Assembly: GCF_000003605.2 (NCBI RefSeq)
Contig: NW_003133360.1
Coordinates: 198,889-226,943, forward strand
Length of the DNA stretch: 28,055 nt
Direction: 5' to 3'
DNA from: Saccoglossus kowalevskii
Taxonomy: Eukaryota > Hemichordata > Enteropneusta > Harrimaniidae
Position 1 is the first letter of the stretch. Every line of letters begins with the position of its first letter. The position numbers and the translations under genes are program-made. Positions 985 to 26,783 of this stretch are shown in pieces. The notes beneath the pieces are model-generated. The model saw nothing but the letters and a program-made list of their open reading frames with translations. It was not told where the DNA came from and searched no databases.

Positions 985-1114
985 CTGATGGAGTTAACAA
1001 GTTGTGTTTACTATCTGGTCCATATTCACCCAAACCTTTGGTACTATTTGATCCCTTGGCTGCAGACTCCATGTAACAACAGTCTGTATACTCTTTCACT
1101 TTACCAAGTGCAAC
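985..1114 (-). CDS. PARP exon 35 of 35 visible: late catalytic domain
   Basis: Codes for residues 1807-1850, beginning VALGKVKEYTDCCY and ending KGLGEYGPDSKHNLLTPSG. This matches the PARP catalytic stretch around 'alG..yE' and 'kGlG...Pd'. Acceptor AG at 1116-1115; donor GTAT at 984-981. It starts in phase 0 and ends after one base of a codon. The next exon, expected to carry the catalytic Glu (E of H-Y-E), was not found between 1 and 984 and presumably lies left of the window. Confidence 0.88.
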
Positions 1115-1346
1115 CTACGAAATACAAAAAGAATTTAAAAGGCTATAGACCAACTGATATGTGATATCCTACAACCATGCATCTAAATACAATGAGTATG
1201 TGGAAGAACTGGTTAGTTTTAATCCCAGGTGTTTTTGCTCCCTTGTGTATTCCCAGTCCATTTATTACCAAATATGTGAAGTTTGGTAATAACTTGCCAC
1301 AGCAACGGCAGACATAGAACAAAGTGATCCTCATCTTTAACTATGT

Positions 1347-1792
1347 TACATGTTACATACCTGGTTATTATTTACATGGTTACATACCTGGTTATTATCA
1401 CATGGTTACATACCTGGTTATCATCACATGGTTACATACCTGGTTATTATCACATGGTTACAAACCTGGTTATTATCACATTGTTACATACCTGGTTATT
1501 CTTACATGGTTACATACCTGGTTATCATCACATGGTTACATACCTGGTTATTATCACATGGTTACAAACCTGGTTATTATCACATTGTTACATACCTGGT
1601 TATTCTTACATGGTTACATACCTGGTTATTATCACATGGTTACATACCTGGTTATTATCACATGGTTACATACCTGGTTATTATCACATGGTTACATACC
1701 TGGTTATTATCACATGGTTACATACCTGGTTATCATCACATGGTTACATACCTGGTTATTATCACATGGTTACATACTTGGTTATTATTACA
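1347..1792. repeat. 26-bp minisatellite, about 17 copies
   Basis: Unit CATGGTTACATACCTGGTTATTATCA-like, period 26 bp (starts at 1401 and 1427, for example). Variants 'ACAAACC' and 'CATTGTTA' recur together at 1453 and 1557, 104 bp (four units) apart, showing higher-order copying. The unit has no stop in any plus-strand frame, so all three frames stay open for about 460-500 bases; these frames are not genes. Lies in the intron between the catalytic exons at 985 and 1814. Confidence 0.95.
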
Positions 1793-1813
1793 GTTTTACG
1801 AGCTATAACTTAC

Positions 1814-1909
1814 CTCTGTTAACAACATAAATTTGCTTGATAAACTCTTTGATCCATATGAATGACAGTAAGCTTCACTTTTCTGGAAAGTATCTGAGGT
1901 ATAAATTCC
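1814..1909 (-). CDS. PARP exon 34: catalytic core with catalytic Tyr
   Basis: Residues 1775-1806, starting GIYTSDTFQKSEAYC and ending KFMLLTE. Tyr1777 aligns with PARP1 Tyr896 (second residue of H-Y-E) and Tyr1788 with PARP1 Tyr907, both NAD+-contacting in the family. PARP1 has 'GIYFAD' where this protein has 'GIYTSD'. Length 96 bp, phase 0 at both ends, so skipping it would delete the catalytic Tyr without a frameshift. Donor GAG|GTAAGT. Confidence 0.93.
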
Positions 1910-2127
1910 CTAAAAAGTAAAAAATAGTTAGAAGAAAAACAAGATCATAGCACACCTATTACAGCCTTGCTTTCATAAAAAATATTCAGTCAAATGAAAT
2001 TTCTCATGATCATGATTTGTAAAATTACCTATCAATATTAGGGTCTATGATTACTACCAAAGACTTGACAAATATAAAAATTGATATCAATGGAAAATAA
2101 ATAAATTGTATTCGGGCCGATAAATAT

Positions 2128-2276
2128 GACATATAGTAGATAATATTTGGTAATTGTCCAAAGTAACTATAAGCGATGGCTCTTCATCGGTAGCATAGAA
2201 GATAAAGATCAATTGCTCAAAAGTATATTGAATAGTTACTTTTAGTTACGATTACCAAATATTGTCTACTATATAT
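2128..2276. mobile_element. Small MITE-like inverted-repeat element
   Basis: Left arm near 2130-2156 reads ATATAGTAGATAATATTTGG; the right arm near 2250-2278 is its inverse complement, ATATAGTAGACAATATTTGG. The arms extend inward imperfectly to GTAACTAT. No coding sequence. Exact ends and target-site duplication are unclear in the AT-rich flanks. Confidence 0.65.
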
Positions 2277-2428
2277 TATACATATGGACATGCTAGCTGC
2301 AGTTTACATTACACAAGGGAATAATATCTATCTTTGAACCTCAATTGAAAGCTTAATGGATAAGATCATGCATGTAATAATTTATAATACATATCAAATA
2401 AAATATAAAATGAAGATACTAAATGTAC

Positions 2429-2619
2429 CTTTCCAAACATATATCCGGTAACTGGAGCCTCAGCTGGTGCCACTAACAGCCCTTTCATGAGTATGCTAAT
2501 AAGATTGGCAGGACTTGTACCATGCCAAAGTAACATGTGATTGTCAAGATCGCAGTTATTAAGTTTCTCTGCTTCACCTTGTCTTTGTAAAGTAAATATA
2601 CCCTGTACTCTGACTCTGC
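2429..2619 (-). CDS. PARP exon 33: start of catalytic domain with catalytic His
   Basis: Residues 1711-1774. Contains LLWHGTSPANLISILMKGL, where His1743 is the catalytic/NAD+-binding His (PARP1 His862). The donor-loop region APAEAPVTGYMFGK follows, close to PARP1. The preceding strand RVRVQGIFTLQRQGEAEK matches the usual 'V..I..v.r.GE' entry to the fold. Acceptor TTTGCAG|GC, donor AAG|GTACAT. Confidence 0.95.
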
Positions 2620-2744
2620 CTGCAAAGGAATACAAGATGGAATTCGCACATGATGAGTGCAATGGAATCATAAACAAACATATCAAAGAAAGCTTAGAAA
2701 GAACTCCCGTGTGCTGAGAGAGTATTAGAGACGCAGTAAAAATT

Positions 2745-5311: not shown

Positions 5312-5425
5312 CTGAACATGTATTCTGAATATATTTTAAAATATGTTGGGCCTCTAAACTGTGTTTATCAAGCACCTTCATTTGGCAGTCAGTACTTCTA
5401 TATACATAATCTAAAGGATTTATTT
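5312..5425 (-). CDS. PARP exon 32: link from regulatory to catalytic domain
   Basis: Residues 1673-1711: starts EINPLDYVYRSTDCQMKVLD and ends HILKYIQNTCSG. In PARPs the 'nPlD..Y..L.c....ld' segment joins the helical regulatory domain to the ART fold. Acceptor TTTCAG|AA; donor G|GTGAGT. The exon begins with two bases completing the Glu codon started in the previous exon. Confidence 0.92.
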
Positions 5426-5658
5426 CTGAAAGATAAAAATAACAGATTTGACAACTAGCACTTCAACCTCGTACAAATATTTGGCCAATGCTGTTTTTAT
5501 TGTAGGATGATCATCAGAGATAGCAATGTTAAAGGGCTGTGGTTGTGTTTGAATTTCATGTAAATAAACAATGTATTTTACATGTGTTGTATACGTCGCT
5601 ATGAGTCCCATATCGAACTGAACATTGCACAACAACCATCGCCCTTCAATTTTATTAC

Positions 5659-5836
5659 CTTTTGCTTTCAGCTGTGCACCAAGCAATACCCGGCTTGCAA
5701 CTTCAAGGTCAAGTAAATTATTAATTTTATTGACTTCTGCTTTTAATGCATCTGGTTCATTTAATGGTGTTAACTCTTCGTAGACGTAATTGGCCGAGGG
5801 TACCAGCTGAAAATATTCACTACTCAGATCAGCCAC
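5659..5836 (-). CDS. PARP exon 31: PARP regulatory (helical) domain, second half
   Basis: Residues 1614-1673: VADLSSEYFQLVPSANY, then NKINNLLDLEVASRVLLGAQ. This is the PARP regulatory-domain signature ('L...fy..iP' and 'l..LlDle.a..ll'). Translation stays open past 5659 into the intron, but splicing at AAAG|GTAATA restores the family sequence LKAK-EINPLDY with the next exon, so that donor was chosen. Confidence 0.95.
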
Positions 5837-6031
5837 CTGGAAGGATAAGACATGAGTCATGTCAGTCATACTGCATCAAATGAAATGTAATCACACAGGG
5901 AGTAACTTTATACAAGTAATACAAAGAAAGCAATTATAATAACTTGTGAAAACTTTTCACTGAATCAATTGTGTTTCTGTGATTAATATGGTTGATTATA
6001 AAAGAAATAAGTCATTATAAGCAAAACTTAC

Positions 6032-6110
6032 TTTTTCCATAGTTTCTTGGTATTGATGTAGATCAGGAAAACCTTCATCTTGTTGCTTTTCAACTTCATC
6101 AACTAATGGC
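6032..6110 (-). CDS. PARP exon 30: regulatory domain helix
   Basis: Residues 1587-1613: PLVDEVEKQQDEGF and ending HQYQETMEK. A short exon between two PRD exons; frame and borders (ATTTTAG|GCC, AAA|GTAAGT) fit both neighbours. It corresponds to the variable helix between 'il' and 'ia.lsn.fy' in PARP regulatory domains. Confidence 0.9.
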
Positions 6111-6182
6111 CTAAAATGCCATAATGAATAATTAATTAATCCATCCACTGACCTCACCATCCAATGACTGATTGTGATTGAA

Positions 6183-6310
6183 TACTGTGAAATACTATTT
6201 TATGTGGATTTTATTTTCACTGTTTTTTGACGTGTTGAATGGAAAATACAGGAAAAAAAGTATATTTGCTGGATTTTATTTTCACTGAATCATTCCTTCA
6301 GGGAAAATAG
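6183..6310. repeat. Short dispersed AT-rich repeat
   Basis: Two direct copies of TGGATTTTATTTTCACTG (near 6209 and 6280), with a related GGATTTTATTTTAACTG near 12284. Probably an eroded short element; no ends recognised. The rest of this intron (6111-6577) shows nothing else. Confidence 0.35.
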
Positions 6311-6577
6311 CGTAAATTAAATTCCAAGCGAGGACTAAGTTCTTGCTTTCAGCTTGTGCGGGCTGAGTACAGAGTTGTCCCACAGTGTGCCCCTCTTTTT
6401 GCCAAAATAAATTACGTTTTATCATTTACATTGTTGTGTGGTGTCATAAAAGTAATTTACAGTAATAATTATTTTCTCCACTGACCTCTCCATCCAATAT
6501 CATAATGATTGTTTCCCCACCAACCTCTAAACCCAATATCACCAATGTATGTGATTTCTGACAATTCAGTTTCTTAC

Positions 6578-6699
6578 CTTATTCGATTTAAAATTTCTCT
6601 AGCTTGTTCCAGCACATCTCTGGGAATCCTTCCAAATGGCATATATGAGGTGTTCACATTAGTATTCCTCAATGCTGCTTTTAACATACTAAAACTGGT
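6578..6699 (-). CDS. PARP exon 29: regulatory domain, first helices
   Basis: Residues 1547-1587: TSFSMLKAALRNTNVNTSYM then PFGRIPRDVLEQAREILNRI. The 'mPlGkls..qi..g..iL..i' motif of PARP regulatory domains is recognisable as MPFGRIPRDVLEQAREIL. Acceptor TTTACAG|ACC; donor AAG|GTAAGA. An open frame on the opposite strand here is a shadow. Confidence 0.93.
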
Positions 6700-6837
6700 C
6701 TGTAAAAGTCACATTAATATTATAAATTTAAATTAACTTCATACTTTCATTGCTCATTGAAAATAATATGCAAATTTGCTAATTAACATACACAGATTTT
6801 ATTCAGCCAACAACAAATCAAAGTTTTATTGACAGAC

Positions 6838-7010
6838 AGACTGTGTGAACTCAAAGACTGTATTTTGAGCCTTCACACACATGACATTGTGATAGACCAA
6901 TGGACAGACTGTATTTTGAGCCTTCACACACATGACATTGTGATAGACCAATGGACAGACTGTGTGAACTCAAAGACTGTATTTTGAGCCTTCACACACA
7001 TGACATTGAC
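6838..7010. repeat. Short direct-repeat cluster next to a splice donor
   Basis: The motif AGACTGTATTTTGAGCC with ACACACATGACATTG occurs three times (starts near 6855, 6906 and 6974), with AGACTGTGTGAACTCAA before the first and third. The last copy ends four bases short of the donor of the exon at 7015-7162. Confidence 0.85.
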
Positions 7011-7014
7011 TTAC

Positions 7015-7162
7015 CAATTGTTCATATACATCTTTCACATCGTCTGGAAGTTTAGAAGGAATGTCCGATTTTAAATTAATATCCAACTCTGTTAATGTCT
7101 TCTTTTGAATTCTCCTCCTCTCAGACTTCACTAAAGAGTACTTCTTCGGTTTCTTCTCAAAA
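7015..7162 (-). CDS. PARP exon 28: basic linker into regulatory domain
   Basis: Residues 1497-1546. Starts with a basic stretch FEKKPKKYSLVKSERRRIQ, then LPDDVKDVYEQL, the first helix of the regulatory domain ('l...v..li..if'). The basic segment could act as a nuclear localisation signal (inference). A 51/68-bp direct-repeat cluster ends right at its donor CAATTG|GTAAGT. Confidence 0.9.
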
Positions 7163-7536: not shown

Positions 7537-7706
7537 CTTGAGACTTGAGACCAGAGATTTCCAGTCTTGGATTTGAAAATTTTACAAAATTCTCTAATCC
7601 CGTCTTCTGTTTTTTGAAAAGGAGTTCGTTGAAAGTTGCCTTCGTCACCTATGCGACCCCACCGTGTGAAGAGCACATATATTTCTTTGCCTTTCTGATG
7701 TATTAA
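7537..7706 (-). CDS. PARP exon 27: WGR domain, main part
   Basis: Residues 1441-1497: LIHQKGKEIYVLFTRWGRIG then GNFQRTPFQKTEDGIREFCK and FKSKTGNLWSQVS. WGR at 1456-1458, followed by the family pattern G-x-x-G and 'F..KT.N.W'. WGR domains occur in PARP1/2/3, where they read DNA breaks and signal to the helical domain. Acceptor TTTGTAG|TTA; donor AG|GTAAAG. Confidence 0.96.
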
Positions 7707-7928
7707 CTACAAAACACAAAAAATATGTTTTGTGAAATGTGACTTTATATCATCACTTACCAAAAGTATAGAAAGTCTGCATTGTAAGAAACAGACATTG
7801 TCAACTCAATACATAGCTTTATTTCTTTCTGTTCTTGACAATGACACACCATGACAACATGTCTGTTTCAACAGAATATCTGTTTTCAATCACAGTTTAG
7901 TTACATTGGTGCACAATGTTCAACTAAC

Positions 7929-8034
7929 CTGCATTTTATAAAAGTTGTTCATTCCCCATTTACCATAGTTAACATCTACTTTGGTAAGTAGTACATCATA
8001 AGGTATACCCTGAGACTTGTCTACTAACACCTCA
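7929..8034 (-). CDS. PARP exon 26: WGR domain, N-terminal strand
   Basis: Residues 1405-1440: VLVDKSQGIPYDVLLTKVDV then NYGKWGMNNFYKMQ. WGR domains usually begin with 'vy...L...d...n.NKFYklQll'; here NNFYKMQ joins directly to LIHQKG of the next exon. Borders ATTTCAG|T and CAG|GTTAGT. Confidence 0.94.
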
Positions 8035-8408
8035 CTGAAATAAAAATAATAATATTAGTTTCACCACCGACTCACCAACCTCATGTTCGACTAGTACATG
8101 TATGTTGTGCGTACTTTATCTTCATACGTGATTTTGAAATGGACAGCACAGATGTTACATGTCAGTGTTACAGAGCATCTACTTTGTCCCTTTATATTAT
8201 TTTTTTACATGCTACATCCCCACTAACTTGACGTCATTTGATAGCAAGATTCTGTCTCGTAGGCAGAATGTAATCATTTTTGTTTCCCTCTGCTAAATAG
8301 ATATATGAAGACAAGATTTGACCATGCAATCTCCCAGATGCTTGGTGGACATCCAAACCTTCAAACCACACACATCAATTTCATTCCCTTATTATGTAAA
8401 TAACCTAC
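8035..8408. other. Intron without recognised content
   Basis: Between the first WGR exon and the charged-linker exon. AT-rich; no repeat, open frame or RNA recognised. Confidence 0.5.
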
Positions 8409-8680
8409 CCATTGTTCTGAAGTTCTGATAACTTGTCAATTTCAGCCATTGGAACTTTCTTTGTTGTTGGTTTTTTCACAGTCTCTTCTGCATTATCATT
8501 CTTATCGCCGCTTTCATCAGTTTTTTCTTCTTTCTCTTTGGTCTCTTCCACTTCCATCTCAGTGGTTTCCGCTTCAGTGTATTCTTTAATCATCTGTTGG
8601 GCATCTTCACGAAAATCTGGCATCTCCGTATCCCATTTGATGCCATCATTGCAGCTCTCTACCACTACCGATGGTTTGAC
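8409..8680 (-). CDS. PARP exon 25: charged linker between ankyrin region and WGR
   Basis: Residues 1315-1405. Starts VKPSVVVESCNDGIKWDTEM, followed by a long Glu/Lys/Thr-rich low-complexity stretch (for example EAETTEMEVEETKEKEEK) and ends DKLSELQNNG. Probably disordered. No domain recognised. Donor AATGG|GTAGGT was chosen over the shift by one base because it keeps frame into the WGR exon. The opposite-strand Ser-rich open frame here is a shadow. Confidence 0.9.
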
Positions 8681-9243
8681 CTGTCAAATAATAACACAGA
8701 ATACCATGATTAGAAAAGCACATCACAACTAATGCTATATAACACAGTATAAACATTGCCAACAAATTTACAGTAATTCAAAATTTTTAATCATCAACAT
8801 TATTATGGACATTATTTTTATGCATTTTTCTATAATTTTTTTGTTAATTTTTAACAAACTTCCATTAGCTACATGCCCCGAACTGCATTTTGGAAAACAA
8901 ATCAAAAATTACATACCGGTAGATTTATTTTGTGGAATGTGACAAAGTTAGTTGATGTTTAAAGTGTTTAACAGAATACTGTAAATGTATTAATTATTAA
9001 CTGGGTTTCACAAATAAAATTCGCTCAATTTAATTCACATAAAAATATATAAAAAAAAAACTCATTGTTTTATTGCTGGAAAATTTGTTAACTTAATACC
9101 AAGTGAATATGATAAAAAAATTAAAATAGTGAGATTAAATATCAGTGAAAATAAATGGTTTTACAGTAGGTGGGTGATAGGTAGAATCAGGTTTCATCAC
9201 AGTACAGAAAAACCTACAAGTTCTAGGAAGAACTTTCTATTAA

Positions 9244-10110: not shown

Positions 10111-10376
10111 CAAAACATCCGATTTTAATAGTTTCTGTATCATCGTGGCCATCTTCACAGAATGACTATTTAAGGCATAATCCAGTGGACTCTTGCCTTT
10201 ATCATCATTCACATTTAATGCAGCTCCAACATCAAATAATAATTGTAAAATATCGGTATTTTCATAAGTACCAAAGTCACATGTTTTCATTATATGGTGC
10301 ATAACAGTCCGTCCCTGATTGTCCACTGCTGCCAAGTCCACACTGCTCTTCTTTTCAAATTTTTCTTTCTTCTCAT
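10111..10376 (-). CDS. PARP exon 24: last ankyrin repeats
   Basis: Residues 1226-1314. After a Lys/Glu start (EKKEKFEKKSS) come NQGRTVMHHIMKTCDFG, DILQLLFDVGAALNVNDDKG and KSPLDYALNSHSVKMATMI, ankyrin-like helices and a 'vG A.lnv.D..G.spLdyA' turn. Donor TTG|GTAAGT; acceptor CATCAG|AT. The downstream intron carries a large repeat element and the upstream one a 43-bp minisatellite. Confidence 0.93.
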
Positions 10377-11716: not shown

Positions 11717-11827
11717 CTTTGTCTTTCTCTTCTTCTTCCTCCTCTTCCTCCATTGATTCTTCATGTTCCTCATCCTCATCTTCATCTTCATTGTCAGAGT
11801 CTTCATTACTGTTATCATCACTAACAC
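11717..11827 (-). CDS. PARP exon 23: acidic low-complexity exon
   Basis: Residues 1189-1226: VSDDNSNEDSDNEDEDEDEE, then a run of eight Glu ending EKDK. Almost entirely Asp/Glu/Ser. Borders TTTCAG|GTG and AAAG|GTAACT keep frame with both neighbours, so it is real coding sequence and not a simple repeat. It splits the ankyrin region from its last repeats and may be a disordered acidic patch. The Ser-rich frame on the other strand is a shadow. Confidence 0.85.
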
Positions 11828-14136: not shown

Positions 14137-14257
14137 ATAAAATGATTACTCATGACAAACCACAAGCATCAATCAAAGATGTTCAAGGAAACAAGTTCAA
14201 AGGAAAGTACAAGTCCAACAAAAGATACAAGCATGATTATTGGTTAATATTACATAC

Positions 14258-15597: not shown

Positions 15598-15653
15598 TAT
15601 ATCATATAATTAATATAATTTTAATACCATATTCATACACCATCACAACTTAC

Positions 15654-15771
15654 CAAGAAACAGTTTCAATAATTTATTATTCTGCATAACTGCCAGATAA
15701 TGTATAGGAGTACAACCATAGACATCTCGGACTGTCAGTTTAAGACCATGTGTCAATAAGTCTGCCCCTAT
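15654..15771 (-). CDS. PARP exon 19: ankyrin repeat
   Basis: Residues 964-1003: IGADLLTHGLKLTVRDVYG then CTPIHYLAVMQNNKLLKLFL. Canonical 'rD.yG.TPiHyla...n' ankyrin turn. Borders TCTACAG|ATA and CTTG|GTAAGT. Its downstream intron (14376-15653) contains the Tigger-like transposon. Confidence 0.93.
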
Positions 15772-15901
15772 CTGTAGAAAGACAAGACATAGGAGAAAGA
15801 GATTGCAGGAACACCAAATGAAGATACGATATAACCATGTAACAACACAGTTAATGAACGCAATGGTTTAGAATAGACCTGTACAAAGAAAGGAATGTTA
15901 C

Positions 15902-16069
15902 CTTCAGACACTGATCTTGAACATGTTCATCAGTATCTTGACTACCAGTTAGTGCCAATGTATGCAGAAGATTCCTAGCTTTCTTAATAATCACTTGTAG
16001 TCTACTGTGGTCTTTCTGTTTTCGTAACATGCTTGACACTAATTGATACGCATATGCTTCTAATGCACT
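15902..16069 (-). CDS. PARP exon 18: helical segment between ankyrin blocks
   Basis: Residues 908-963: SALEAYAYQLVSSMLRKQKD, RLQVIIKKARNLLHTLALTG, ending DEHVQDQCLK. 'NLLHTLAL' resembles a degenerate ankyrin helix; the rest is basic/helical. 168 bp, phase 0 at both ends. Borders CTACAG|AGT and AAG|GTAACA. Confidence 0.9.
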
Positions 16070-16171
16070 CTGTAGTATATGGGAAAAAAACAGCCATATA
16101 TAATTGCTGGTTTAACATTTTCAGCACCAAACTTTCTTGCCTAAATTTGTTTGCTTTTTTTTAATATTCTT

Positions 16172-16352
16172 CAATATTTCTAGAAATGAACCTTAATTTT
16201 GGAGCCAACAGACAAAATATGAGTACATTTTCAGTTTTACTAAAAAATTTTTTACTATTTTTGTCCCAATCTCCTAAAGGAAATTGCAGACTATAAAAGG
16301 ACTATTTCGTGAATTTGAGATGAAAAGAGGGAACTGGTGGTGAAAAGGTTAA
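16172..16352. repeat. Dispersed intronic repeat, copy 2 of 2
   Basis: Counterpart of 13958-14136, in the same orientation, ending GGGAACTGGTGGTGAAAAGG-TTAA. Both copies sit in introns of the same gene about 2.2 kb apart. Confidence 0.8.
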
Positions 16353-16473
16353 CAAATCTTGTGTATAATAACAAAATATAGACCATGCAAGAATGAATGA
16401 CAAGCAGCTGTTGTACAAGAAAGTAATTTAGAGACAACAAATTATATTTCTACTGGGTACATTTATTACTTAC

Positions 16474-16741
16474 GTTAACAGCACTAGCATATTCATATCG
16501 TTTTAATTCCCACTGTTCCATGAGTAAAAACACGACACCTTGCCATCCATTTTCTACAACTTTGTGAAATAATGAGTATTCAAATGGTTTAGGAGGTGGT
16601 AAGATTGTGGGACAGTACTTCCAGATTGGCTTCACAGGCTTTCCTTCTTCATTTTCAAGGTCTTTTGTCGAGACTTTTTCAGGGGGATACACAATGTTGA
16701 TATTCGTACACGCACCATTTTGAATTAGAAGAATTGCACAA
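16474..16741 (-). CDS. PARP exon 17: ankyrin repeats with a Pro-rich loop
   Basis: Residues 818-907: CAILLIQNGACTNINIVYPP, a loop with PTILPPPKPF, then YSLFHKVVENGWQGVVFLLM. The loop of about 40 residues interrupts an ankyrin finger. Borders TTTCAG|T and AAC|GTAAGT. The intron upstream of it in transcription (16742-17263) is nearly all 41-bp minisatellite. Confidence 0.93.
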
Positions 16742-16789
16742 CTGAAATTAACAACAAATAAAACATGGCATTTCAAATATGAAGACATG

Positions 16790-17264
16790 CAAAGATGACA
16801 TAGCCCTTGTCTGTTATTCCACATATACTTCAAAGATGACATAGCCCTTGTCTGTTATTCCACATATACTTCAAAGATGACATAGCCCTTGTCTGTTATT
16901 CCACATATACTTCAAAGATGACATAGCTTTTGTCTGTTATTCCACATATACTTCAAAGATGACATAGCCCTTGTCTGTTATTCCACATATACTTCAAAGA
17001 TGACATAGCTTTTGTCTGTTATTCCACATATACTTCAAAGATGACATAGCCATTGTCTGTTATTCCACATATACTGCTAAGATGGCATAGCCCTTGTCTG
17101 TCATTTCACAGATATTCCAAAGATGAAATATCTCTTACCTGTCATTCCTCACACACACTCTAAAGATGACATAGCCCTTGTCTGTCATTCCACACACATT
17201 CTTAAGATGACATAGCCCTTGTCTGTTATTCCACATATATTCCAAAGATGACATAGCCCTTACC
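16790..17264. repeat. 41-bp minisatellite ending at a splice donor, about 11-12 copies
   Basis: Unit CAAAGATGACATAGCCCTTG + TCTGTTATTCCACATATACTT, period 41 bp (16831, 16872 and onward). Copies become more variable to the right. The last copy reads GACATAGCCCTTACCTGTCA, where TTAC|CTGTC is the inverse complement of the donor GACAG|GTAA of the exon at 17264-17340. Confidence 0.95.
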
Positions 17265-17340
17265 TGTCATGTCCTGCTTGTACAGCCAGACCTAATGGCG
17301 TATTACCATGGTTATCTTTTTGATCTAAGTCTATCCTCCA
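17264..17340 (-). CDS. PARP exon 16: ankyrin repeat; donor abuts a minisatellite
   Basis: Residues 793-818: WRIDLDQKDNHGNTPLGLAV then QAGHDS. Typical 'D..GnTPL.lAv..gh'. Borders TTTGCAG|TGG and GACAG|GTAAGG. The 41-bp tandem array at 16790-17264 runs right up to this donor and resembles it. Confidence 0.95.
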
Positions 17341-18202
17341 CTGCAAACAAGAAACAAAAAAAATTATTGGCCCATTATTTGAAAACTATACTGAGTTAGT
17401 CTTTTTCTATATCATATACATATTAAATGTACAGTATTATTCTTACGCTAACAGATTAAATATGACAGCAATAGTATGAATGTTCTAAATTATTATATCT
17501 CAACAAGGTTGATGGATTGTTATTTGTTTACCATACTGGTGAATATCAGACAGGGGCAGGTATTATTAATTGCAAAATAACATTTCATACCTTTAATAGT
17601 TCCATATTGAAATAATAAAAATAATCTCATAATCCCTTATAGAATATAACATTCCCTAAATAGAGTAGAAATTGATCTAAGCGAAATTTTAGCGAAAAAA
17701 ATATACAAGCCATGTATGATTTTGGCAGAAAAATATTATTGTCTACATAAGAAGAACAACACATCTGGTTACTAACAGATCTTGGGGAGTATAGTACTGA
17801 CCATCAGGTTCTCATTTTTATGTCTAAACTTTTTAATTTATTTTGGGCCCAATTTTCACATATATCATGAAAATTATATATAATAATAATCACAGTGAAA
17901 TTGAATTATTGCAACCACAAGAAACAAGGGTTTAAGACAAAAACAACAAAGAGGAAGAAGAATTTCTTTGCTTCATCGGATGATACAAGCAAGGTAAAAT
18001 TAAAAGTGCTTATCGACCACATCATATATGCCACCATTATCCTAGCCACAAGAAGTGTTAATAATGATAAAAATATGCATCATTATGGGCAAGGTAAAAA
18101 AAGGAATATTGATAGATATAATGTTGGCTAGGAAGAGATATACATGAAGTGTGTGTACATGTACCAGGATTTAAAGGTCATGCACAAATCGTTGTAACTC
18201 AC
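17341..18202. other. Intron without recognised content
   Basis: AT-rich. A Lys-rich open frame on the plus strand (17895-18131) has no family resemblance and no codon pattern suggesting a gene. Confidence 0.5.
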
Positions 18203-18606
18203 CTTGGCTTTATGAGTTGTAATATGAAGGCAGGATATTGCAGCACCTCTGAATGCAGCCCTATGTAATACCGATTGTCCATATTTATCTGTACTATCAA
18301 CTCCTTTATCATTCATAGCTTTAGTTAATAAGCTAACCACTTCAATAGGATCTAGTTGTGATTTATCAGTATGTTCACCCATTTTAACTAATGCATAATG
18401 CAATGGCAGTCTATTGTATTTATCTCTCACTAAGGGGTTTGCTCCTTTTTCCAGCAGAATTTCCTCTGTTTCTACGGACGAGTCTGGTCCACCAGTATTG
18501 CTATTCACGGCATAGTGTAATGGAGTACACAGCTTATTATCCATAGCATTTACGTCAGCTCCTGCTTCTATAAGTGACCTCACGGCTGATGCTGTCTCAT
18601 GGCCAG
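18203..18606 (-). CDS. PARP exon 15: four ankyrin repeats (largest exon)
   Basis: Residues 658-792. Repeats: VRSLIEAGADVNAMDNKLCT with PLHYAV; EILLEKGANPLVRDKYNR with LPLHYALVKMG; VDSTDKYGQSVLHRAAFRG; ending LHITTHKAK. 404 bp in one frame. Acceptor AAAACAG|CT, donor AAG|GTGAGT. The strongest ankyrin block in the window. Confidence 0.97.
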
Positions 18607-19042
18607 CTGTTTTGGGGAAAAATACATGTAATTCGGTAAATGTAAACATATTTAGGGAGGTGTAATTTTGAAGTTAAATATCCTATATTAAATCGATATG
18701 AAATTAAATATTAAAATTGAACTCCCCCAGGCATCATGTTAAATTTATTTCACCAAAAAAAATTAAAACAACATTAAATGTATAAATCATACATGAAATA
18801 ATATAAATAAATGAATGCTAGTTAGAATAGTTTTTTTTTTTTGGTAGAGATTACAGATATAGTTCATCAGAACTAGACAGGTCCTTAAACCCTGTATACA
18901 TAATGTTATAGTTTAATCAAATACATCTTCAAATAAAGAAAAACAAACAAATATTGTGAATCAAATATTAAAAAGACAGTGTTTTAACTTTGCTTTAAAC
19001 ATGGTTTTGTATACTTATGCAAGTGAGGTGAGGGGGGTATTA

Positions 19043-19948
19043 ACCGTACTCGACCACGTTAGAGCCCATGCCCAGGCAAGCGCCCGCCCCCGACTTGTGC
19101 GCAATTTTTATATTTGGGGTCACATTCGGCAAAGCGCCCACCCCTTCAAAATGCAACTAATTTAAAACTTGGTCTTGCGTAACAAATCTTGGTAATCGTT
19201 TTTATATGATACAGCATGGATATCGACCCCTGTGAATATGTTGTAAATGCGTAGACCACGGTAACCGTGCGTAAACTATGCTTCGACAATGACCTGTTAA
19301 TAAAAGTAAAGTGCGGTAAATATTTCATGCCATATTCAGTTTACCTCTAAAAAATGGCTAGTTATTAGTTTTTTGGAAAAACCATGTCGTTTATTCGCTG
19401 AAATCAATTCCAACAGATTGTACTTCGACATCGATAATTCACTTCTGCATTGCGTTACCGGAAAGTCTTCGGGAATTTCCGAAGAATTGCGTCGGTACAA
19501 TACAGCAATCTGATTGGTTAATAACCAACTTGACCCATTTGGTCAAAGGACGCTGCTGCAGGTCAAATCTGCAAATGCATCATGGCGGAAAGATTGCATA
19601 CGATCCAACACCTTCGTCAGTGGAGATAAGGATGAGAATTTTGACTAAGACTGTGTTCCAACAGACTCTAATGTTTTTAATTTCATAAATTCTGGTGGTA
19701 CGTAATTAATATTGTAATAAAATGTGCATATTTTTTGTGATCATTTCTGTTTCTTCATTGTGAAAATCAATGACGACGCAACTAATTTCGTAATTTGATT
19801 TTCCCTCAAAGACGTAAACTGTCACATGATGAATCAAAATTTTCATTTGCACTCTTTTTCGAAAGGGGTGCTCGGGTAAGCGCCCACCCCTAAAAAATCA
19901 TGATTTTCTGAGTTGAGGCCCCTGGGCGCTAACACGGTCGAGTACGGT
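19043..19948. mobile_element. 906-bp inverted-repeat element, non-autonomous DNA transposon or MITE
   Basis: Left end ACCGTACTCGACCACGTTAG-AGCCCATGC; right end, inverted, ACCGTACTCGACCGTGTTAG-CGCCCAGGG. Inside both ends lie related GC-rich blocks (AAGCGCCCGCCCC, AAGCGCCCACCCC) in an AT-rich background. No transposase frame. The interior 19500-19620 has a GATTGG box and an ATGGCGG start context. No clear target-site duplication. Short frames at 18956-19328 are not convincing genes. Confidence 0.75.
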
Positions 19949-20107
19949 AGTTTGAAATAATGACATTACTGCCATTAGGTGTCATGCTTGCTCATTCATT
20001 TTAATGAACAATCTCACAGACGTTGAATAGTTCTTGTACATGAGTATGCTTAATTTCTTGACTTATTCTTGTTACTATGTGATGTTATATGTTTACAGTT
20101 TACTTAC

Positions 20108-20220
20108 ATGTGATGTAGCTGCATGTAAAATGCAGAGCTGTTTTATCATTTCTACAATCAACTGCGTTCACATTAGTTCCCTTGTTTATAATCTTAGTTA
20201 CAATACCATACAGTCCTTCC
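20108..20220 (-). CDS. PARP exon 14: ankyrin repeat
   Basis: Residues 620-658: EGLYGIVTKIINKGTNVNAV then DKTALHFTCSYIT. Ankyrin pattern 'G..vn..D...kTALH'. Borders TATATAG|G and ACAT|GTAAGT. The intron after it in transcription (18607-20107) carries a 906-bp inverted-repeat element. Confidence 0.93.
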
Positions 20221-20416
20221 CTATATACAAGTAATACATTGGTATAATTAGTCTCCTCAAAGAGTCCCATTTACTCTGATGCAATTCATTCATAATAATT
20301 TATTTCCGTATTTCTGAAAACTTAGTGTTAAATCTCAGGAAGCATTGAATTGTTAATCATAAGACTACAAATCATAACCTTCATACTACCCAGAATGCAT
20401 TGCAACGTGACCTTAC

Positions 20417-20499
20417 CTAGCAGCAAGAATGATGGGTAATGATTTTCCATCTTCTTTTTCATTTTCCGATGCAGCGTTGACATCAGCTCCTGCTGAAAT
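20417..20499 (-). CDS. PARP exon 13: ankyrin repeat junction
   Basis: Residues 593-620: ISAGADVNAASENEKEDGKS then LPIILAAR. The acceptor TTGACAG|ATT is preferred to a nearby TTTCAG because only the former keeps phase and completes the helix AAEML-ISAGADVN. Donor CTAG|GTAAGG. Confidence 0.92.
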
Positions 20500-20626
20500 C
20501 TGTCAATGACATCAAAATAATAACAGGCTTTAATTGTACTTCAGAAAACAATTTGTGAAGAATTATTTTTTCAAAATCAATTGGTACATATACCAGCAAA
20601 TAATCAATTAAAATCATCATACTTAC

Positions 20627-20820
20627 AAGCATTTCTGCTGCATTTTTATTCTTCTGGTGGATCGCCAACAACAATGGGGTGTTGCCATCCTTATCTCGAA
20701 GGTTTAAATTTGGTTCATGTTTAAGTATCATACTTAGGGCAGGTCTATCTGTTGTTTTATCACCTTCTTTCACAGGCTTTTCATTGGTGCTTATTAACAC
20801 ATGTGATATACTTTGTAAAC
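20627..20820 (-). CDS. PARP exon 12: ankyrin repeat
   Basis: Residues 528-592: LQSISHVLISTNEKPVKEGD, then LNLRDKDGNTPLLLAIHQKN and KNAAEML. Clear ankyrin core 'lRDkdGNTPLllAi..kn...a'. Borders TTATAG|GT and CTT|GTAAGT. Confidence 0.95.
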
Positions 20821-21504
20821 CTATAAGACAAAAGGGAATACATACATTGTCAACCAACTGTATGTTGCCTGTGACATGCAAAGTGAAGAAATGTGTGTCG
20901 TCTCCAATATGTTGAACATAGCATAACTATTATGACCTTGTCTATTGACAATACAGATATTAAAAAATAAACACACATTCAGGATGGATACAATCTAACA
21001 ATTCACTCGCTGATTAGTAATTCTAATCTCCCCGAGCAAAAGAGAAAGAATAAAAGTTCTGAAACACTATATCTCACCAACATTTGCAGGAAAAATATTG
21101 ACTAAATTAAACAAGTGTAACCAAGAAAACCTGTAGTGTAAGGTACATACAAGGTAAAGGTGAGAGTGGTAAAAATTCTTGTAAAAAAGAACAAGAACAA
21201 TGAGGTTACTATAATTAAACTGACATAAAATTGTACACATACATATTGATAAGCACAAATAAAACTTGATTGGTGAAACAAACATGGTGATGTAAACGCT
21301 AAGTAAATTTGATGAATAATCAAACATTTTGATTTCTTCCTAAAATTACATATTAATGGTGTGGGTAGAAGCAAATGGATATATATTTATGATTCTTCCT
21401 TCTTTTATTTCCCTCTCAAAGTTTTTTTTAACTGTTATAGGTAGTTTTAAGAAAATGTTCTTTCAGAAATCTTAGAGGTACCTGCATACAAATATTAATT
21501 AATT
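20821..21504. other. Intron segment without recognised content
   Basis: AT-rich. Phe/Leu-rich open frames on the minus strand (21067-21374) reflect base composition; no signal peptide-plus-domain pattern or family motif was recognised. Confidence 0.45.
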
Positions 21505-21670
21505 CACTTGGACTACCATTTTTTTAGCAGAAGTCAAAGATATCAATTATCCCCACAAAAATACCAAAAATTTAAGAATTAACCAAAGTTAAAGAATTAA
21601 AGATATAGTTTACAAATCTTAGATAGACTTGAAGTTTGTAAGAAGTCGAAAATATCACTTTTTATCATTT
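21505..21670. repeat. Eroded family 3 fragment
   Basis: Contains AAAAATACCAAAAATTTAAG, TTAAAGAATTAAAGATAT and the near-intact AAGAAGTCGAAAATATCACT of family 3. No ends or hairpin. The remainder of the intron to 21913 shows nothing else. Confidence 0.6.
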
Positions 21671-21913
21671 ATGATAATAAATCATATTTGCATAGTTGAG
21701 CTCACAAGGAATCAGCATTAGACAATGGAATTTGTTTTGTTTAAGGCAAAGTTTATACAAATTACATTTAATATGACAATATTGCAATTGGTTTGCAATA
21801 CTTGGACCATAGTGATGCTGTTTACGCAGCTTCAATTTATTTTAGAGTTGTCATAAACATTATACTTCTATATTTAATTTGTTTTTCAAAAATTCTAACA
21901 AAAAAATGATTAC

Positions 21914-22004
21914 CTCTGGTATTATAATCTTCTTCTGTATCAAGTATCTTCTCTCGCTTGCCGACCTGGCAGTTCACATCAGCCTTTATCTTTTCAATAA
22001 ACAC
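21914..22004 (-). CDS. PARP exon 11: ankyrin-linked exon
   Basis: Residues 498-528: VFIEKIKADVNCQVGKREKI then LDTEEDYNTRG. 'kADVNcq' is the end of an ankyrin finger. Borders TTATAG|GTG and AGAG|GTAATC; the split codon AGA-G|GT joins to LQSISH. Confidence 0.88.
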
Positions 22005-22125
22005 CTATAAAAATTTAGATCAGATATTTCACTTTAACATTTGTATATTGTGCACAGAGCAAAATTTATATTACTACATATTTGACCCAATTAGGGTACT
22101 CTTACAACTTTAATTGTAACATTAC

Positions 22126-22197
22126 CTTTAACATAGCGCGTCCGTTTTCCATCATCTTCTGTCTTTCGGATTCGTTTTTACTGTGCTGTGCTTCTGG
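22126..22197 (-). CDS. PARP exon 10: short charged exon
   Basis: Residues 474-497: PEAQHSKNESERQKMMENG then RAMLK. Hydrophilic, with an ankyrin-like helix at the end (NGRAMLK-VFIEKIKADVN). 72 bp, phase 0 at both ends. Borders CTACAG|CCA and AAG|GTAATG. Confidence 0.86.
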
Positions 22198-22802
22198 CTG
22201 TAGATCAAACACACAAATAATTAAACAATGTTCACCTGAAAATCACAACAAGTGGAGATTTTATTCATTGACCATTATAATTCCTGAAATAGAAGATTTA
22301 CTGTTCACTATGAGAAGTCACATAATACATATGTGGTTCGAATGTCTGCTGCGAAAAACAATGATCTTATTTTGAACTTTTTTATACAGATAGTTGTCGA
22401 AATTTCTATCTTTTAGAGAAGAATATCTGATTGAGATATCTTTACTTATCGAAATTGACAACCATCAAATGTGTATAGCACATTATTGAGAAATGGAAAT
22501 ACCCAAAATATAGTTTAGCATTTTTCAATCTACAAGATGTTTTAATGCCATTATGACACTTGTTTGCTTTGTTTTTTAATTTGAATTTTAAGATAGTGTA
22601 CAATACATATTTACCATATCTCATAAATTATGCATGTAAGTCACAACAATCACACTTGGCCAAGATTTAATAGTTTTTATAATGTACATACTAACAACTG
22701 ATAAAATGAAAATAGATGATATAGAAGTAGTGAATGTAAGAAGTACGGTAATTGAACAATATTTAATAATTAAAAAGTCCCTGAAATGTATATGTTGCTT
22801 AC
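22198..22802. other. Intron without recognised content
   Basis: AT-rich; short frames on both strands have no family resemblance. Confidence 0.45.
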
Positions 22803-22931
22803 ATTGAAATCTGCATATACTGCAGCACATCGTAGTAATGGCGTGAAACCCTCCTTATCTTTCTGCATACTCATCTTATGTAATACTGAATTTTCTTTAT
22901 CACCATCACCACAATCATTACCACCAGATTT
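22803..22931 (-). CDS. PARP exon 9: ankyrin repeat
   Basis: Residues 431-473: KSGGNDCGDGDKENSVLHKM, then KDKEGFTPLLRCAAVYADFN. Ankyrin turn 'D.eGfTPLlrcA'. 129 bp, phase 0 at both ends. Borders TTCCAG|AAA and AAT|GTAAGC. Confidence 0.92.
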
Positions 22932-23053
22932 CTGGAATATAACACATTTTATGTCATTTATTAACATATTTGCTGGTCACCATGTTTGTGACAAATGTCG
23001 AACACGAATCAAGATAGTGCTACTAAGTTGGACAATATAAGCTAAAACTAATT

Positions 23054-23266
23054 AAACCATTAACTATAAGACTGATTGTGCCCTGAAACTGAATAAACCA
23101 TTAATTATAATAGTGATTGTGCCCTGAAACTGAATAACCCATTGACTATAATAGTGATTGTGCCCTGAAGCTGAATAAACCATTGACTATAATAGTGATT
23201 GTGCCCTGAAACTGAATAAACCATTAACTATAATAGTGATTGTGCCCTGAAACTGAATAAACCATC
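23054..23266. repeat. 41-bp minisatellite, about 5 copies
   Basis: Unit AAACCATTAACTATAATAGT + GATTGTGCCCTGAAACTGAAT, period 41 bp (23054, 23095 and onward), with few substitutions. In the intron between the exons at 23367 and 22931. Not related in sequence to the other 41-bp array at 16790. Confidence 0.95.
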
Positions 23267-23366
23267 AACTGTTTAACAGCAGAGAAGAATTATACATGCA
23301 AGAATTCAAACAGATAAGTTAGGTGTATGGACCCAATATGAAATCAGCTCTCAGACAGTTACTTAC

Positions 23367-23525
23367 CGTTTTCACAAATGTTTCAATAAGAATGGAGAGA
23401 TCATTAGCCATACACTGCTTGGCCATAATATGAAGTATGTTTTCTCCAATTTTACTAATATCACTGTCTTCAGTTAGAAGTTTACCACCTCTATCTACCA
23501 ACAGCTGTACTAACTTAGTATTATT
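23367..23525 (-). CDS. PARP exon 8: ankyrin repeat
   Basis: Residues 378-430: NNTKLVQLLVDRGGKLLTED, then GENILHIMAKQCMANDLSIL and FVKT. Ankyrin helices 'lvqlLvd.Gg' and 'geniLHimak'. 159 bp, phase 0 at both ends. Borders TTTCAG|AAT and ACG|GTAAGT. Confidence 0.93.
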
Positions 23526-23853
23526 CTGAAACATAATCAGATGCATAGAATTAGAGTTCAGAGAGTGTTTCTTTAAAAAATACATTTTTTCAATTGATAC
23601 ATTTATTAAATTTTTACTATTTTTAATCAGAAATCAGATAAATTCATCAATTTTATAAGTTAATGAACTGAATAAGCATAGTTCAAAAATGTACTTTTTA
23701 AAAAGTACATTTGTTAATAGTTTTTATTATGAAATTATGATTATCATCGGAATATTGTAGCATTTCATTCAACACAAAAAATCTGAATTACCATAGCAAA
23801 CAAATCCTGTAGTGCTTATTTGCACAGTTGTGAAACACACATATTTGTTATAC

Positions 23854-23979
23854 CTGCTGTATTGCCATGGCAATAGGCGTTTCTCCTAATGTATTCACTG
23901 TGGACGGATTACATCCATTGTCTAAAAGGATCTTGGCAACATCCAAACTCACTGACACTTTCTTGGTATCAATAGTGTC
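23854..23979 (-). CDS. PARP exon 7: ankyrin repeat
   Basis: Residues 336-377: DTIDTKKVSVSLDVAKILLD, then NTLGETPIAMAIQQ. Ankyrin turn 'N..GeTPiamAiq'. Missing from simple open-frame lists because it is short. 126 bp, phase 0 at both ends. Borders AACTAG|GAC and CAG|GTATAA. Confidence 0.92.
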
Positions 23980-24653
23980 CTAGTTAAACAAAATCAATAT
24001 TACATTCATTAGAAAATAGTCATGAACAATGACATAGTTTACATGAATAATTTACATTCTGAAATAATATAAGGTCACTGATATTAAGATCGCAGTCATT
24101 GTTTCACAAGGAGTGGGTATTAGAGGTCCCTGTTTTTGTTGGAGGACTGTGGTGTACTAGATACTGTAACTTTATATAATAGCGATGCACATCTCAACTG
24201 TGGAAGAGGCAGGGTCAGTGGTTTGCAAATCAGCATGTAATTTACACATATTGTCACAAAATGTGAATACCGATAAGTATGCATTTGTTTTCACCAAGTT
24301 TTGGATTTATTTAGTTCTGACTGAACAGAATAAATCGTCTTTGTTTTTGGATTTAGCCCACATAAGAACTAACAATCATCACAGATGTAATACCCAGTAT
24401 CTCCCAGCAATGCTCAAACTATAAAATTTGTTAGTTTTTTAAATACAAGGTGTTTGAAATACCAGGAAGAATGTGATTCAGATTGTGGGTTCCCATGTAT
24501 TGGAATTAAATAGTGAAAAAGAAGCAATCCATATCCAGGATGAGATATGTCACCACAGTCTTGTCTATTCATAAAAGTGACTTAGCTGCTGTAGTTGGGA
24601 CATTTGTTCATGTTTAACTCATGATAAGTCACAAAGAGAGAAAGCTTACTTAC
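23980..24653. other. Intron without recognised content
   Basis: A plus-strand open frame at 24185-24424 has no family resemblance. No repeat edges recognised. Confidence 0.45.
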
Positions 24654-24695
24654 CCAGTACTGTACTTTAATATTGTTACAGGCAACATGATGCAA
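24654..24695 (-). CDS. PARP exon 6: 42-bp exon completing an ankyrin helix
   Basis: Residues 322-335: LHHVACNNIKVQYW. It completes NKNNA-LHHVACNN from the previous exon, the 'aLHhvac' core of an ankyrin repeat. Borders TACGTAG|TTG and TGG|GTAAGT; phase 0 at both ends. Much too short for a simple open-frame search, but frame, borders and ankyrin fit agree. Confidence 0.88.
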
Positions 24696-24846
24696 CTACG
24701 TAAAAAAAACAACATTATCACAGACTAAAATATATACAATGAGATTTTATCATAGTACTCCAGAAACGATCCCTATAAACAACATTAGATGAATTAAATC
24801 ACTGAAAAGCAAGTAATTAAAGTGAATAACATAGAGTTGGACTTAC

Positions 24847-25071
24847 TGCATTGTTCTTATTGATGTCAGTCAGTGTGACATCAGCTTTCTTATCTTGTAC
24901 TAGGTATTTCAATTGAGAGGTAAGACCTTTGCCAAGCGTGCTGCCACATACAAGCATCACCATAGTACATCCATTCTCATCTCGGAAATTCACATCTACA
25001 CCTTCTTGTTCCAGTATGAGATCGGCACAGCCAGTATTACCCTGCATTACAGCAATGCCCAGTGGTGTTGT
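24847..25071 (-). CDS. PARP exon 5: two ankyrin repeats
   Basis: Residues 247-321: TTPLGIAVMQGNTGCADLIL, VDVNFRDENGCTMVMLVCG, then LKYLVQDKKADVTLTDINKN. Canonical 'TPLgiAv..gn...ad' and 'vDvNfrDenG' elements. 225 bp, phase 0 at both ends. Borders CAACAG|ACA and GCA|GTAAGT. Confidence 0.95.
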
Positions 25072-25406
25072 CTGTTGATAACAATGTTTTCAAACATTAT
25101 GTATACAGAGTACAGTAGATAAATTCATAACTCACTGAATCTATGGGGCAACTAGGTATATCAGCATGTGTGATCTAGTATGTAATTGTATCACTAGTGA
25201 TTGATACAACCAGGTTACATTAAACACAACACTGACAATTAAACTGAAACACAGGAACTCATGCAATATAAGCAATATAAAACATTATTTGTAGATTTGG
25301 AAAGTTAATATGCACAATAAAAATTAATCCAGAATAAACCCATAGTGACTTACTAATGTAACTGATCAAGTGGTTGAAAACACAGTTACAATCATTGTGT
25401 ACATAC
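25072..25406. other. Intron without recognised content
   Basis: AT-rich; nothing beyond splice signals at its ends. Confidence 0.45.
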
Positions 25407-25615
25407 CTTCCAGTCATTAGGTGTATTGATATCAGATCCAGCAGCTAGTAACACTTTTAGACAGTACCACCAACCATAACCTGCAGCATAATGTGCGGCT
25501 GTATTTCCCGATGAATCACTCACATTAGGATTGGCACCCTTTCTCAGTAGATAACAAACCACAGGGTAGTGACCATTCATCACAGCATGGATTAAGGCTG
25601 TTCGCTTTAATTTGT
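25407..25615 (-). CDS. PARP exon 4: two ankyrin repeats
   Basis: Residues 177-246: KLKRTALIHAVMNGHYPVV, LLRKGANPNVSDSSGNTAAH, YAAGYGWWYCLKVLLAAGSD and INTPNDWK. Strong match to the ankyrin consensus. Acceptor TTTTTAG|AC; donor AAG|GTATGT. Joins exon 5 as NDWK-TTPLGIA. Confidence 0.96.
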
Positions 25616-26038
25616 CTAAAAAACCAAAACACAAATTCAATCTCCTGATATTTTATTTGAAGCACATGATTACTGGTTGCAGGTATTCCACTGTAATCCC
25701 CACATATACTGTAAAACTGCTTAATTCTTACTGCTTGCAATTTTCGCGAAGACAAATTTTGCGAAGTTCACTGCTTTTACTGCTACAAAATTATATGATT
25801 TTTACTGACTTTTAAAAATTTGTCTCTAATACAGTTCACAGTAACCACATGTATGTTGGTCTATTAATACATAAGTACGGGTACACCTAAAATGAACACA
25901 AGCAATCTAAAGATAGAACACCAGCAACCAGCTTCAAGACAATTACTAGAAAATGGCTGAAAAGCACCCCCCCCCCCAAAATGGCATGATCAACATTATG
26001 ACCATTTTGTCTCCATAGAAACCAAACAATAGACTGAC
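25616..26038. other. Intron with a short palindromic AT-rich stretch
   Basis: TACTGTAAAACTG at about 25708 and AATTTTCGCGAAGAC followed by TTTTGCGAAG at 25739-25763 hint at an eroded MITE. A poly-C run lies at about 25969-25977. Nothing else recognised. Confidence 0.35.
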
Positions 26039-26195
26039 CTCTCTTTTCAACAGCAGCACCTACATCTATCAGAGCTTTGACTGTGGGTAGATATCCTTTC
26101 CTTGCAGCCAACATGACCGGCGTCATTTTATTGCGTCCTGCACTAAGTACCTTCTCAACATCAGCGCCATGCTTAACTAAGGCACGTACCACATC
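26039..26195 (-). CDS. PARP exon 3: ankyrin repeats
   Basis: Residues 125-177: DVVRALVKHGADVEKVLSAG, NKMTPVMLAARKGYLPTVKA and LIDVGAAVEKR. Canonical repeats. Acceptor TGTATAG|GAT; donor AGAG|GTCAGT gives the split Asp codon into exon 4. Confidence 0.95.
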
Positions 26196-26300
26196 CTATA
26201 CAAATAAATGTAAGGTTACACTCAAGCTGACAACACAGAAGAGAAATAGAATACCGTTCACTCAGTGTAATCGCAAGTATGGCGTAACGTATTGACTTAC

Positions 26301-26508
26301 CACATGGCCGTTCTCTGCAGCATAGTGCAAGGCTGTATATGTTGCCCTGTCTGTTCTATCAATCTGAAAACCACCACCGTCTTCATCACGATTCTTGGAA
26401 TCTTTTATTTTCTTAGCTAATATTTCTATATTATGCACTCGTCCTGTTTTTGCTGCAACCATCAATGGAGTTAAACACATATTGTCTGTTTCCTCAGGGT
26501 TCATACCT
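26301..26508 (-). CDS. PARP exon 2: ankyrin repeats
   Basis: Residues 55-124: GMNPEETDNMCLTPLMVAAK, VHNIEILAKKIKDSKNRDED, then TDRATYTALHYAAENGHV. An acidic/Gly insert (DEDGGG) lengthens the first repeat. Acceptor TCACCAG|A; donor GTG|GTAAGT. The internal ATG at 26504 is not taken as a start because frame and ankyrin structure continue upstream. Confidence 0.95.
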
Positions 26509-26619
26509 CTGGTGAAGGAATAATCAAAGATTGATGATAGAGGGCGCTGTACATCAACCAGGTTACTGGTAATAATCTAAATGATCTGTTTTATAGCTGA
26601 TAATGACGAAACCGTTTAC

Positions 26620-26783
26620 CTTGAAAGCAGTAATTCCAACGTAGCTGTGCCTTCGGATGCTGCGGCATAATGTATTGGTTTACGTCCTAACCTATCCGGA
26701 GCACTGTAGTCTGGTAACGCTGCCAACAGCTTGGTCAGATACTTAACATTAGGATTGATGGCTGCACAGTGTAATGGTAGAAT
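26620..26783 (-). CDS. PARP exon 1 visible (5'-most in window): ankyrin repeats
   Basis: Residues 1-55: ILPLHCAAINPNVKYLTKLL, then GRKPIHYAAASEGTATLELL and LSR. Begins in mid-repeat ('..lPLHcAa') at acceptor TTTTTCAG|ATT in phase 0, so at least one more coding exon lies upstream, probably past base 28055. Donor TCAAG|GTAAAC. Confidence 0.94.

What the first reader, a model, noticed from the sequence alone, without database searches (positions are those of the whole stretch)
985..26783. ANK-WGR-PRD-PARP architecture in a large invertebrate gene
The spliced frame joins at least 1,200 residues of ankyrin repeats to a WGR domain and a PRD-type PARP catalytic module. Vertebrate tankyrases have ANK-SAM-PARP with no WGR or PRD, and PARP1-3 have WGR-PRD-PARP without ankyrins. 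This protein therefore combines a DNA-damage-type regulatory core with a tankyrase-like binding platform, as known for nematode PME-5. Finding it outside nematodes (which the repeat content suggests, but does not prove) would argue for an old animal PARP class lost in vertebrates.
Basis: partly seen in the sequence, partly recalled or inferred. Interest (0 to 1): 0.7.

Follow-up and report, generated by a model that had tools for sequence, protein, structure and literature searches.

The report
Ankyrin-bearing PARP1/2-type enzyme gene
This is a large intron-rich gene for a DNA-break-type PARP enzyme that carries a long ankyrin-repeat arm, a combination already described in a roundworm and a slime mould, so it is a good new example of a known kind rather than a new kind.

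Summary
[quoted passage not shown] Both gene ends, with the expected catalytic glutamate, lie outside the window.

The catalytic piece alone scores 85-90 bits with PARP1/PARP2, 31 with PARP3 and 21-25 with PARP4; no tankyrase is among the 45 hits at E up to 10. Pfam shows no SAM domain.

The architecture is published: Otto 2005 (C. elegans, Dictyostelium), Citarelli 2010 (Clade 1A), Perina 2014 (Clade 1 PARPs with ankyrins, lancelet included). No PME-5-type sequence could be reached, so no tree was made; the species is unknown. Most likely it is a DNA-break-responsive ADP-ribosyltransferase with an ankyrin partner-binding arm; DNA response and partners are inferred. New member of a known kind; modest interest.

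The parts
12347..26783 (-). Exons 1-22, main ankyrin-repeat region (residues 1-1188), interrupted array; the N-terminus lies outside the window
   Evidence: Spliced model; Pfam Ank_2 6.1e-105 on the whole protein; ankyrin signal in 6 of 6 fragments of residues 1-1188
11717..11827 (-). Exon 23, acidic (Asp/Glu-rich) linker, residues 1189-1225
   Evidence: up to 68% D+E in a 40-residue window
10111..10376 (-). Exon 24, last ankyrin-like segment, residues 1226-1314
   Evidence: fragment 7: Ank_2 E 4.8e-5, 24.3 bits, below the curated 27.3
8409..8680 (-). Exon 25, Glu/Lys-rich linker joining ankyrin and WGR parts, residues 1315-1404
   Evidence: no Pfam match (fragment 8)
7537..8034 (-). Exons 26-27, WGR domain (residues 1417-1498)
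   Evidence: Pfam PF05406 3.8e-19, profile 1-78 of 79; Asn567, Trp589 and Arg591 equivalents present
5312..7162 (-). Exons 28-32, PARP regulatory (helical, PRD) domain (residues 1533-1681)
   Evidence: Pfam PF02877 7.4e-22, profile 1-135 of 135
985..2619 (-). Exons 33-35, PARP catalytic domain (match 1696-1843 begins in exon 32); His and Tyr of the HYE triad present, the Glu expected in the next exon outside the window
   Evidence: Pfam PF00644 4.3e-35, profile 2-152 of 199; His862, Tyr896, Ser904, Tyr907 equivalents

Best explanation
The window holds most of one large gene for a Clade 1-type PARP with an N-terminal ankyrin arm (the 'Clade 1-ank' or PME-5 kind). Most likely mechanism: the WGR domain contacts a DNA break and signals to the helical regulatory domain (PRD), whose opening lets NAD+ into the catalytic pocket. 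The enzyme then ADP-ribosylates itself and nearby chromatin proteins. The ankyrin arm holds particular partner proteins near the catalytic site, and the acidic linkers act as flexible spacers and possible acceptor sites. Shown here: domain order, open frame, PARP1/2-type core with His, Tyr and other pocket and WGR residues kept. Inferred: DNA-break activation, nuclear location, partner binding, poly- rather than mono-ADP-ribosylation, and one transcript.
For: Spliced 35-exon frame without stops. Pfam ANK, WGR, PARP_reg and PARP, all above curated cut-offs. PARP1 2.8e-63, PARP2 1.5e-47, PARP3 2.7e-22, PARP4 3.6e-7, tankyrase-2 0.056 (best rows). Catalytic piece alone: PARP1/2 85-90 bits and no tankyrase among 45 hits at E up to 10. 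Of 27 PARP1 positions checked (chosen from recall), 19 are identical: N567, W589, R591, K633, L713, D770, H862, G863, N868, A880, Y889, M890, F891, K893, Y896, K903, S904, Y907, C908. Function of the kind: pme-5 is transiently induced by ionising radiation (passages of PMC2491638); PME-5 is reported as nuclear and chromatin-associated, with more apoptosis after RNAi and damage (PMC2964712 section 19).
Against: The catalytic Glu is not in the window, so activity is not assured. Eight of the 27 checked positions are changed: L698, L701, H742, L765, D766, S864, R878, F897, five of them in the helical domain. Five residues of the helical-to-catalytic linker are missing at the exon 32/33 join. No direct comparison with PME-5 or Dictyostelium ADPRT3 was possible, and there is no RNA evidence. 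PMC2491638 says the function of pme-5 in the worm is not known and calls it a tankyrase; the cohesin interaction in PMC3297586 holds for all five pme genes, so it is not specific.
Confidence: 0.85

Rival explanations
1. It is a tankyrase (Clade 4) that has lost SAM and gained a WGR-PRD segment, and works on tankyrase partners through tankyrase-type ankyrin clusters.
For: Ankyrin repeats N-terminal to a PARP domain; tankyrase-1 is among the ankyrin hits (row 44 of 60 shown, 416 in all); tankyrase-2 is a weak hit of the core (E 0.056).
Against: No SAM domain at E up to 0.1; the catalytic piece has no tankyrase hit at E up to 10 while PARP1/2 score 85-90 bits; one Cys only in the segment where tankyrases carry their CHCC zinc site (motif recalled; segment).
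Confidence: 0.03
2. Two neighbouring genes, an ankyrin-only gene and a PARP2-like WGR-PRD-PARP gene, run head to tail on the minus strand; the reader and I spliced them together.
For: The last ankyrin segment and WGR are linked by low-complexity linkers. Exon 25 holds in-frame Met codons that could start a short PARP2-like protein, and reading on past its donor meets a stop at once (frame 8683..8408), so intron retention there would end an ankyrin-only protein.
Against: Exon 25 has an acceptor and a donor in phase on both sides and no in-frame stop; I recognised no terminal exon of an ankyrin gene, though I ran no dedicated search for one; the same architecture is reported as one protein in C. 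elegans and Dictyostelium.
Confidence: 0.1
3. A degenerate or inactive copy kept only as a scaffold.
For: Gene incomplete in the window, so Glu unseen; 5-residue shortening at the exon 32/33 join; helical-domain changes.
Against: 35 exons without a stop and with intact splice sites; conserved pocket residues.
Confidence: 0.07

Closest known systems
Clade 1-ank PARPs: C. elegans PME-5 (Ce.pARTc), Dictyostelium ADPRT3 / Dd.pARTb, Branchiostoma floridae and Saprolegnia members
   Same: [quoted passage not shown] elegans and Dictyostelium in PMC1266365 and PMC2964712; the lancelet and Saprolegnia proteins are described in the passages I saw only as Clade 1 PARPs with ankyrins); catalytic domain nearer PARP1 than tankyrase, as reported for PME-5 (PMC2964712)
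   Different: Sequences not compared directly (none reachable here). This copy is spread over at least 35 exons, some introns filled with minisatellites.
PARP1 / PARP2 (Clade 1)
   Same: WGR-PRD-catalytic core, 36% identity to human PARP1 over the aligned core, pocket residues
   Different: Long ankyrin arm; no PARP zinc fingers, PADR1 or BRCT found in the part of the protein in the window
Tankyrases (Clade 4)
   Same: N-terminal ankyrins and C-terminal PARP domain
   Different: WGR and PRD present, SAM absent, catalytic piece without a tankyrase hit at E up to 10, ankyrins not specially tankyrase-like

Membership tests
Clade 1-ank PARP (PME-5 kind) | Ankyrin repeats N-terminal to WGR-PRD-PARP in one frame | tested here: met
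   (spliced model; no RNA)
Clade 1-ank PARP (PME-5 kind) | Clade 1 (PARP1-type) catalytic domain | tested here: met
   PARP1/2 far above PARP3, PARP4 and tankyrase (score ranking against solved structures, not a tree)
Clade 1-ank PARP (PME-5 kind) | Catalytic H-Y-E triad | tested here: inconclusive
   His and Tyr present; Glu expected in an exon outside the window
Clade 1-ank PARP (PME-5 kind) | Groups with PME-5 / Dictyostelium Clade 1A proteins in a tree | not testable with these tools
   No such sequence reached: searches confirmed no relative; one search gave phage PARPs only
Tankyrase (Clade 4) | SAM domain between ankyrins and PARP | tested here: not met
   No SAM at E up to 0.1 in the Pfam scan
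Tankyrase (Clade 4) | Tankyrase-type catalytic domain | tested here: not met
   No tankyrase among 45 hits at E up to 10
PARP1 | PARP zinc fingers, PADR1, BRCT N-terminal to WGR | tested here: not met
   None in the part in the window; ankyrins and linkers stand there instead

The most novel reading that the evidence does not exclude
The gene is a true orthologue of PME-5 and of the lancelet and Dictyostelium Clade 1-ank PARPs in an invertebrate outside nematodes. Its interrupted ankyrin array is homologous to theirs, so the fusion arose once before animals and was lost in vertebrates, rather than arising several times as Perina 2014 suggests.
Probability: 0.4. Interest if true: 0.45.

Novelty: new member of a known kind. 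Interest (0 to 1): 0.25.

Why it matters
It gives an open-frame, intron-rich example of a PARP class known mostly from a fast-evolving nematode and from protists. If sampled across animals, this class could show whether one ancestral enzyme joined DNA-break sensing to ankyrin partner binding, a job that vertebrates split between PARP1/2 and tankyrases. Much of the idea is already in print.

Tried and rejected
Relatives by back-translated patterns: viral contigs (3 and 209 stretches) and genome contigs (19 and 115 stretches) gave pattern matches but no confirmed relative. tblastn in phage records gave 8 records with distant PARPs, 24-41% identity. I fetched four of the 8 and used two as PDB queries, hoping to print PARP2, PARP3 and tankyrase sequences for a tree. 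The alignments printed were of PARP1 chains or chains named only poly(ADP-ribose) polymerase, so no tree was built; the score ranking takes its place.

A missed microexon between exons 32 and 33 was sought: 18 rows were printed after asking for a His, at least 8 of 15 pyrimidines before the acceptor and a GTA/GTG donor. One was exactly 15 bases, but its His does not fall at the expected place; none was adopted.

Rfam scan of the window: 0 matches at the gathering thresholds. The intronic transposase fragment has no match among plasmids. A 141-residue open frame at 27328-26906 (minus) has no Pfam family at E up to 0.1. Plus-strand frames were listed but not scanned against families.

Species: the genome search 'own' did not complete four times. 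Introns have median 413.5 and maximum 2692 bases, which does not look like C. elegans to me (recalled); other nematodes are not excluded.

Literature: eight searches ran (two found no paper); one search was turned back for its wording. Papers seen in passages or sections only: PMC2964712, PMC4245714, PMC1266365, PMC3297586, PMC2491638. Gravel 2004 was seen only as a reference.

Full report
Observation. Stop-to-stop frames were listed (both strands from 60 residues; minus strand from 30 residues), and the exon-like ones on the minus strand were joined at AG...GT sites (sequences). The model has 35 exons from 26783 down to 985, 5548 coding bases, 1849 residues and no stop, with phases in agreement at all 34 internal junctions. 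Because I chose boundaries with the frame in view, phase agreement is not independent; the domain matches are more so. Pfam gives ankyrin (Ank_2 6.1e-105), WGR (3.8e-19, profile 1-78 of 79), PARP_reg (7.4e-22, 1-135 of 135) and PARP (4.3e-35, 2-152 of 199), all above curated cut-offs, with no SAM, BRCT, PADR1 or PARP zinc finger among the 12 families at E up to 0.1. Each of 7 fragments covering residues 1-1314 shows ankyrin signal on its own, the seventh below the curated cut-offs; the eighth fragment (exon 25) shows no family. A profile built from human ankyrin-1 repeats gives 14 rows, 12 below E 1 and 7 below E 0.1, against none below 0.1 in 20 shuffled and 1 reversed controls. The repeats are real but divergent and interrupted.

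Limits. The window starts and ends inside the gene. The last exon seen ends in phase 1 after ...LLTPS, so the part expected to hold the third catalytic residue (Glu988 of PARP1, recalled numbering) lies beyond position 1 on the low side. The N-terminus is beyond the high side. At the exon 32/33 join the protein is 5 residues shorter than PARP1; the microexon scan did not settle whether an exon was missed.

What kind of PARP. Against the solved structures, the 445-residue core ranks PARP1 2.8e-63, PARP2 1.5e-47, PARP3 2.7e-22, PARP4 3.6e-7, tankyrase-2 0.056 (best rows; 60 of 83 distinct hits shown). With 111 catalytic residues alone, PARP1 and PARP2 chains score 85-90 bits, PARP3 31 and PARP4 21-25, and no tankyrase occurs among all 45 hits at E up to 10. 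Of 27 PARP1 positions that I recalled as functional, 19 are identical, among them Asn567, Trp589, Arg591, His862, Tyr889, Tyr896, Ser904 and Tyr907; 8 differ (Leu698, Leu701, His742, Leu765, Asp766, Ser864, Arg878, Phe897). The ankyrin arm (first 473 residues) matches ankyrin-1 best (270 bits); tankyrase-1 comes in row 44 of the 60 shown, with 104.7 bits. Nothing here makes the arm tankyrase-like in particular; binding of tankyrase-type peptides was not testable.

Known or new. Otto 2005 (PMC1266365, passages) calls a C. [quoted passage not shown] Citarelli 2010 (PMC2964712, passages and section 19) describes Clade 1A, found in Dictyostelium, fungi and Paramecium, as the one Clade 1 subclade containing ankyrin proteins, leaves PME-5 unplaced (probably a long-branch effect), and states that ankyrins were gained at least twice. 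Perina 2014 (PMC4245714, passages and part 1 of 3 of section 7) names the ankyrin-type Clade 1 PARP, reports it in C. elegans, Branchiostoma floridae, Dictyostelium and Saprolegnia, mentions further ankyrin-PARP combinations in Monosiga and Naegleria, and favours several independent origins; the body of its Table 1 was not held. The class is therefore already known outside nematodes, in a chordate too. That vertebrates lack it is my inference from the human Clade 1 set of PARP1-3 given there. I saw no paper on a mollusc or similar member in the rows listed by searches (1 of 1 listed; 20 of 290 listed; 20 of 27 listed; none found), which is weak evidence of absence.

How it works. By analogy with PARP1/2 (established knowledge), WGR contact with a DNA break opens the helical domain and activates the catalytic site; the ankyrin arm would choose partners. 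pme-5 is transiently induced by radiation, in a paper that also says its worm function is not known; its product is reported as nuclear and chromatin-associated, with more apoptosis after RNAi and damage; and pme-5 interacts with a cohesin mutant, as do all five pme genes. DNA activation, location and partners are inferred for the window's protein.

Verdict. The bolder claim, one old origin of the fusion, needs PME-5-type sequences that could not be reached here.

Noticed in passing
16790-17261, 6855-6963, 7176-7392, 1348-1792, 10488-11627, 23045-23270: Introns carry minisatellites (41 nt x11.5, 51 nt x2.1, exact 110-nt duplication, 26 nt x17.1, 43 nt x26.5, 41 nt x5.5). The 16790-17261 array ends at the exon 16 donor, and the 26-nt unit repeats a donor-like CAG|GTATGT (read), so a donor edge may have been amplified.
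   Followed up: partly
14680-15126, minus strand: Transposase fragment with CENP-B_N and Tc5-type HTH domains (3.1e-11, 1.5e-7) inside intron 19.
   Followed up: partly
4388-4977, 9459-9990, 27806-28055: Dispersed copies of an element with 157-base internal repeats, about 64-98% alike by family, inside introns 32 and 24 and upstream of exon 1.
   Followed up: no
L001 1450-2724, L002 1405-2556, L003 1131-2402, L004 1101-2381: Phages encode PARP proteins similar to the core, one listed only as hypothetical protein (Stenotrophomonas phage RAS14, 85% of the query covered, 24% identity).
   Followed up: partly
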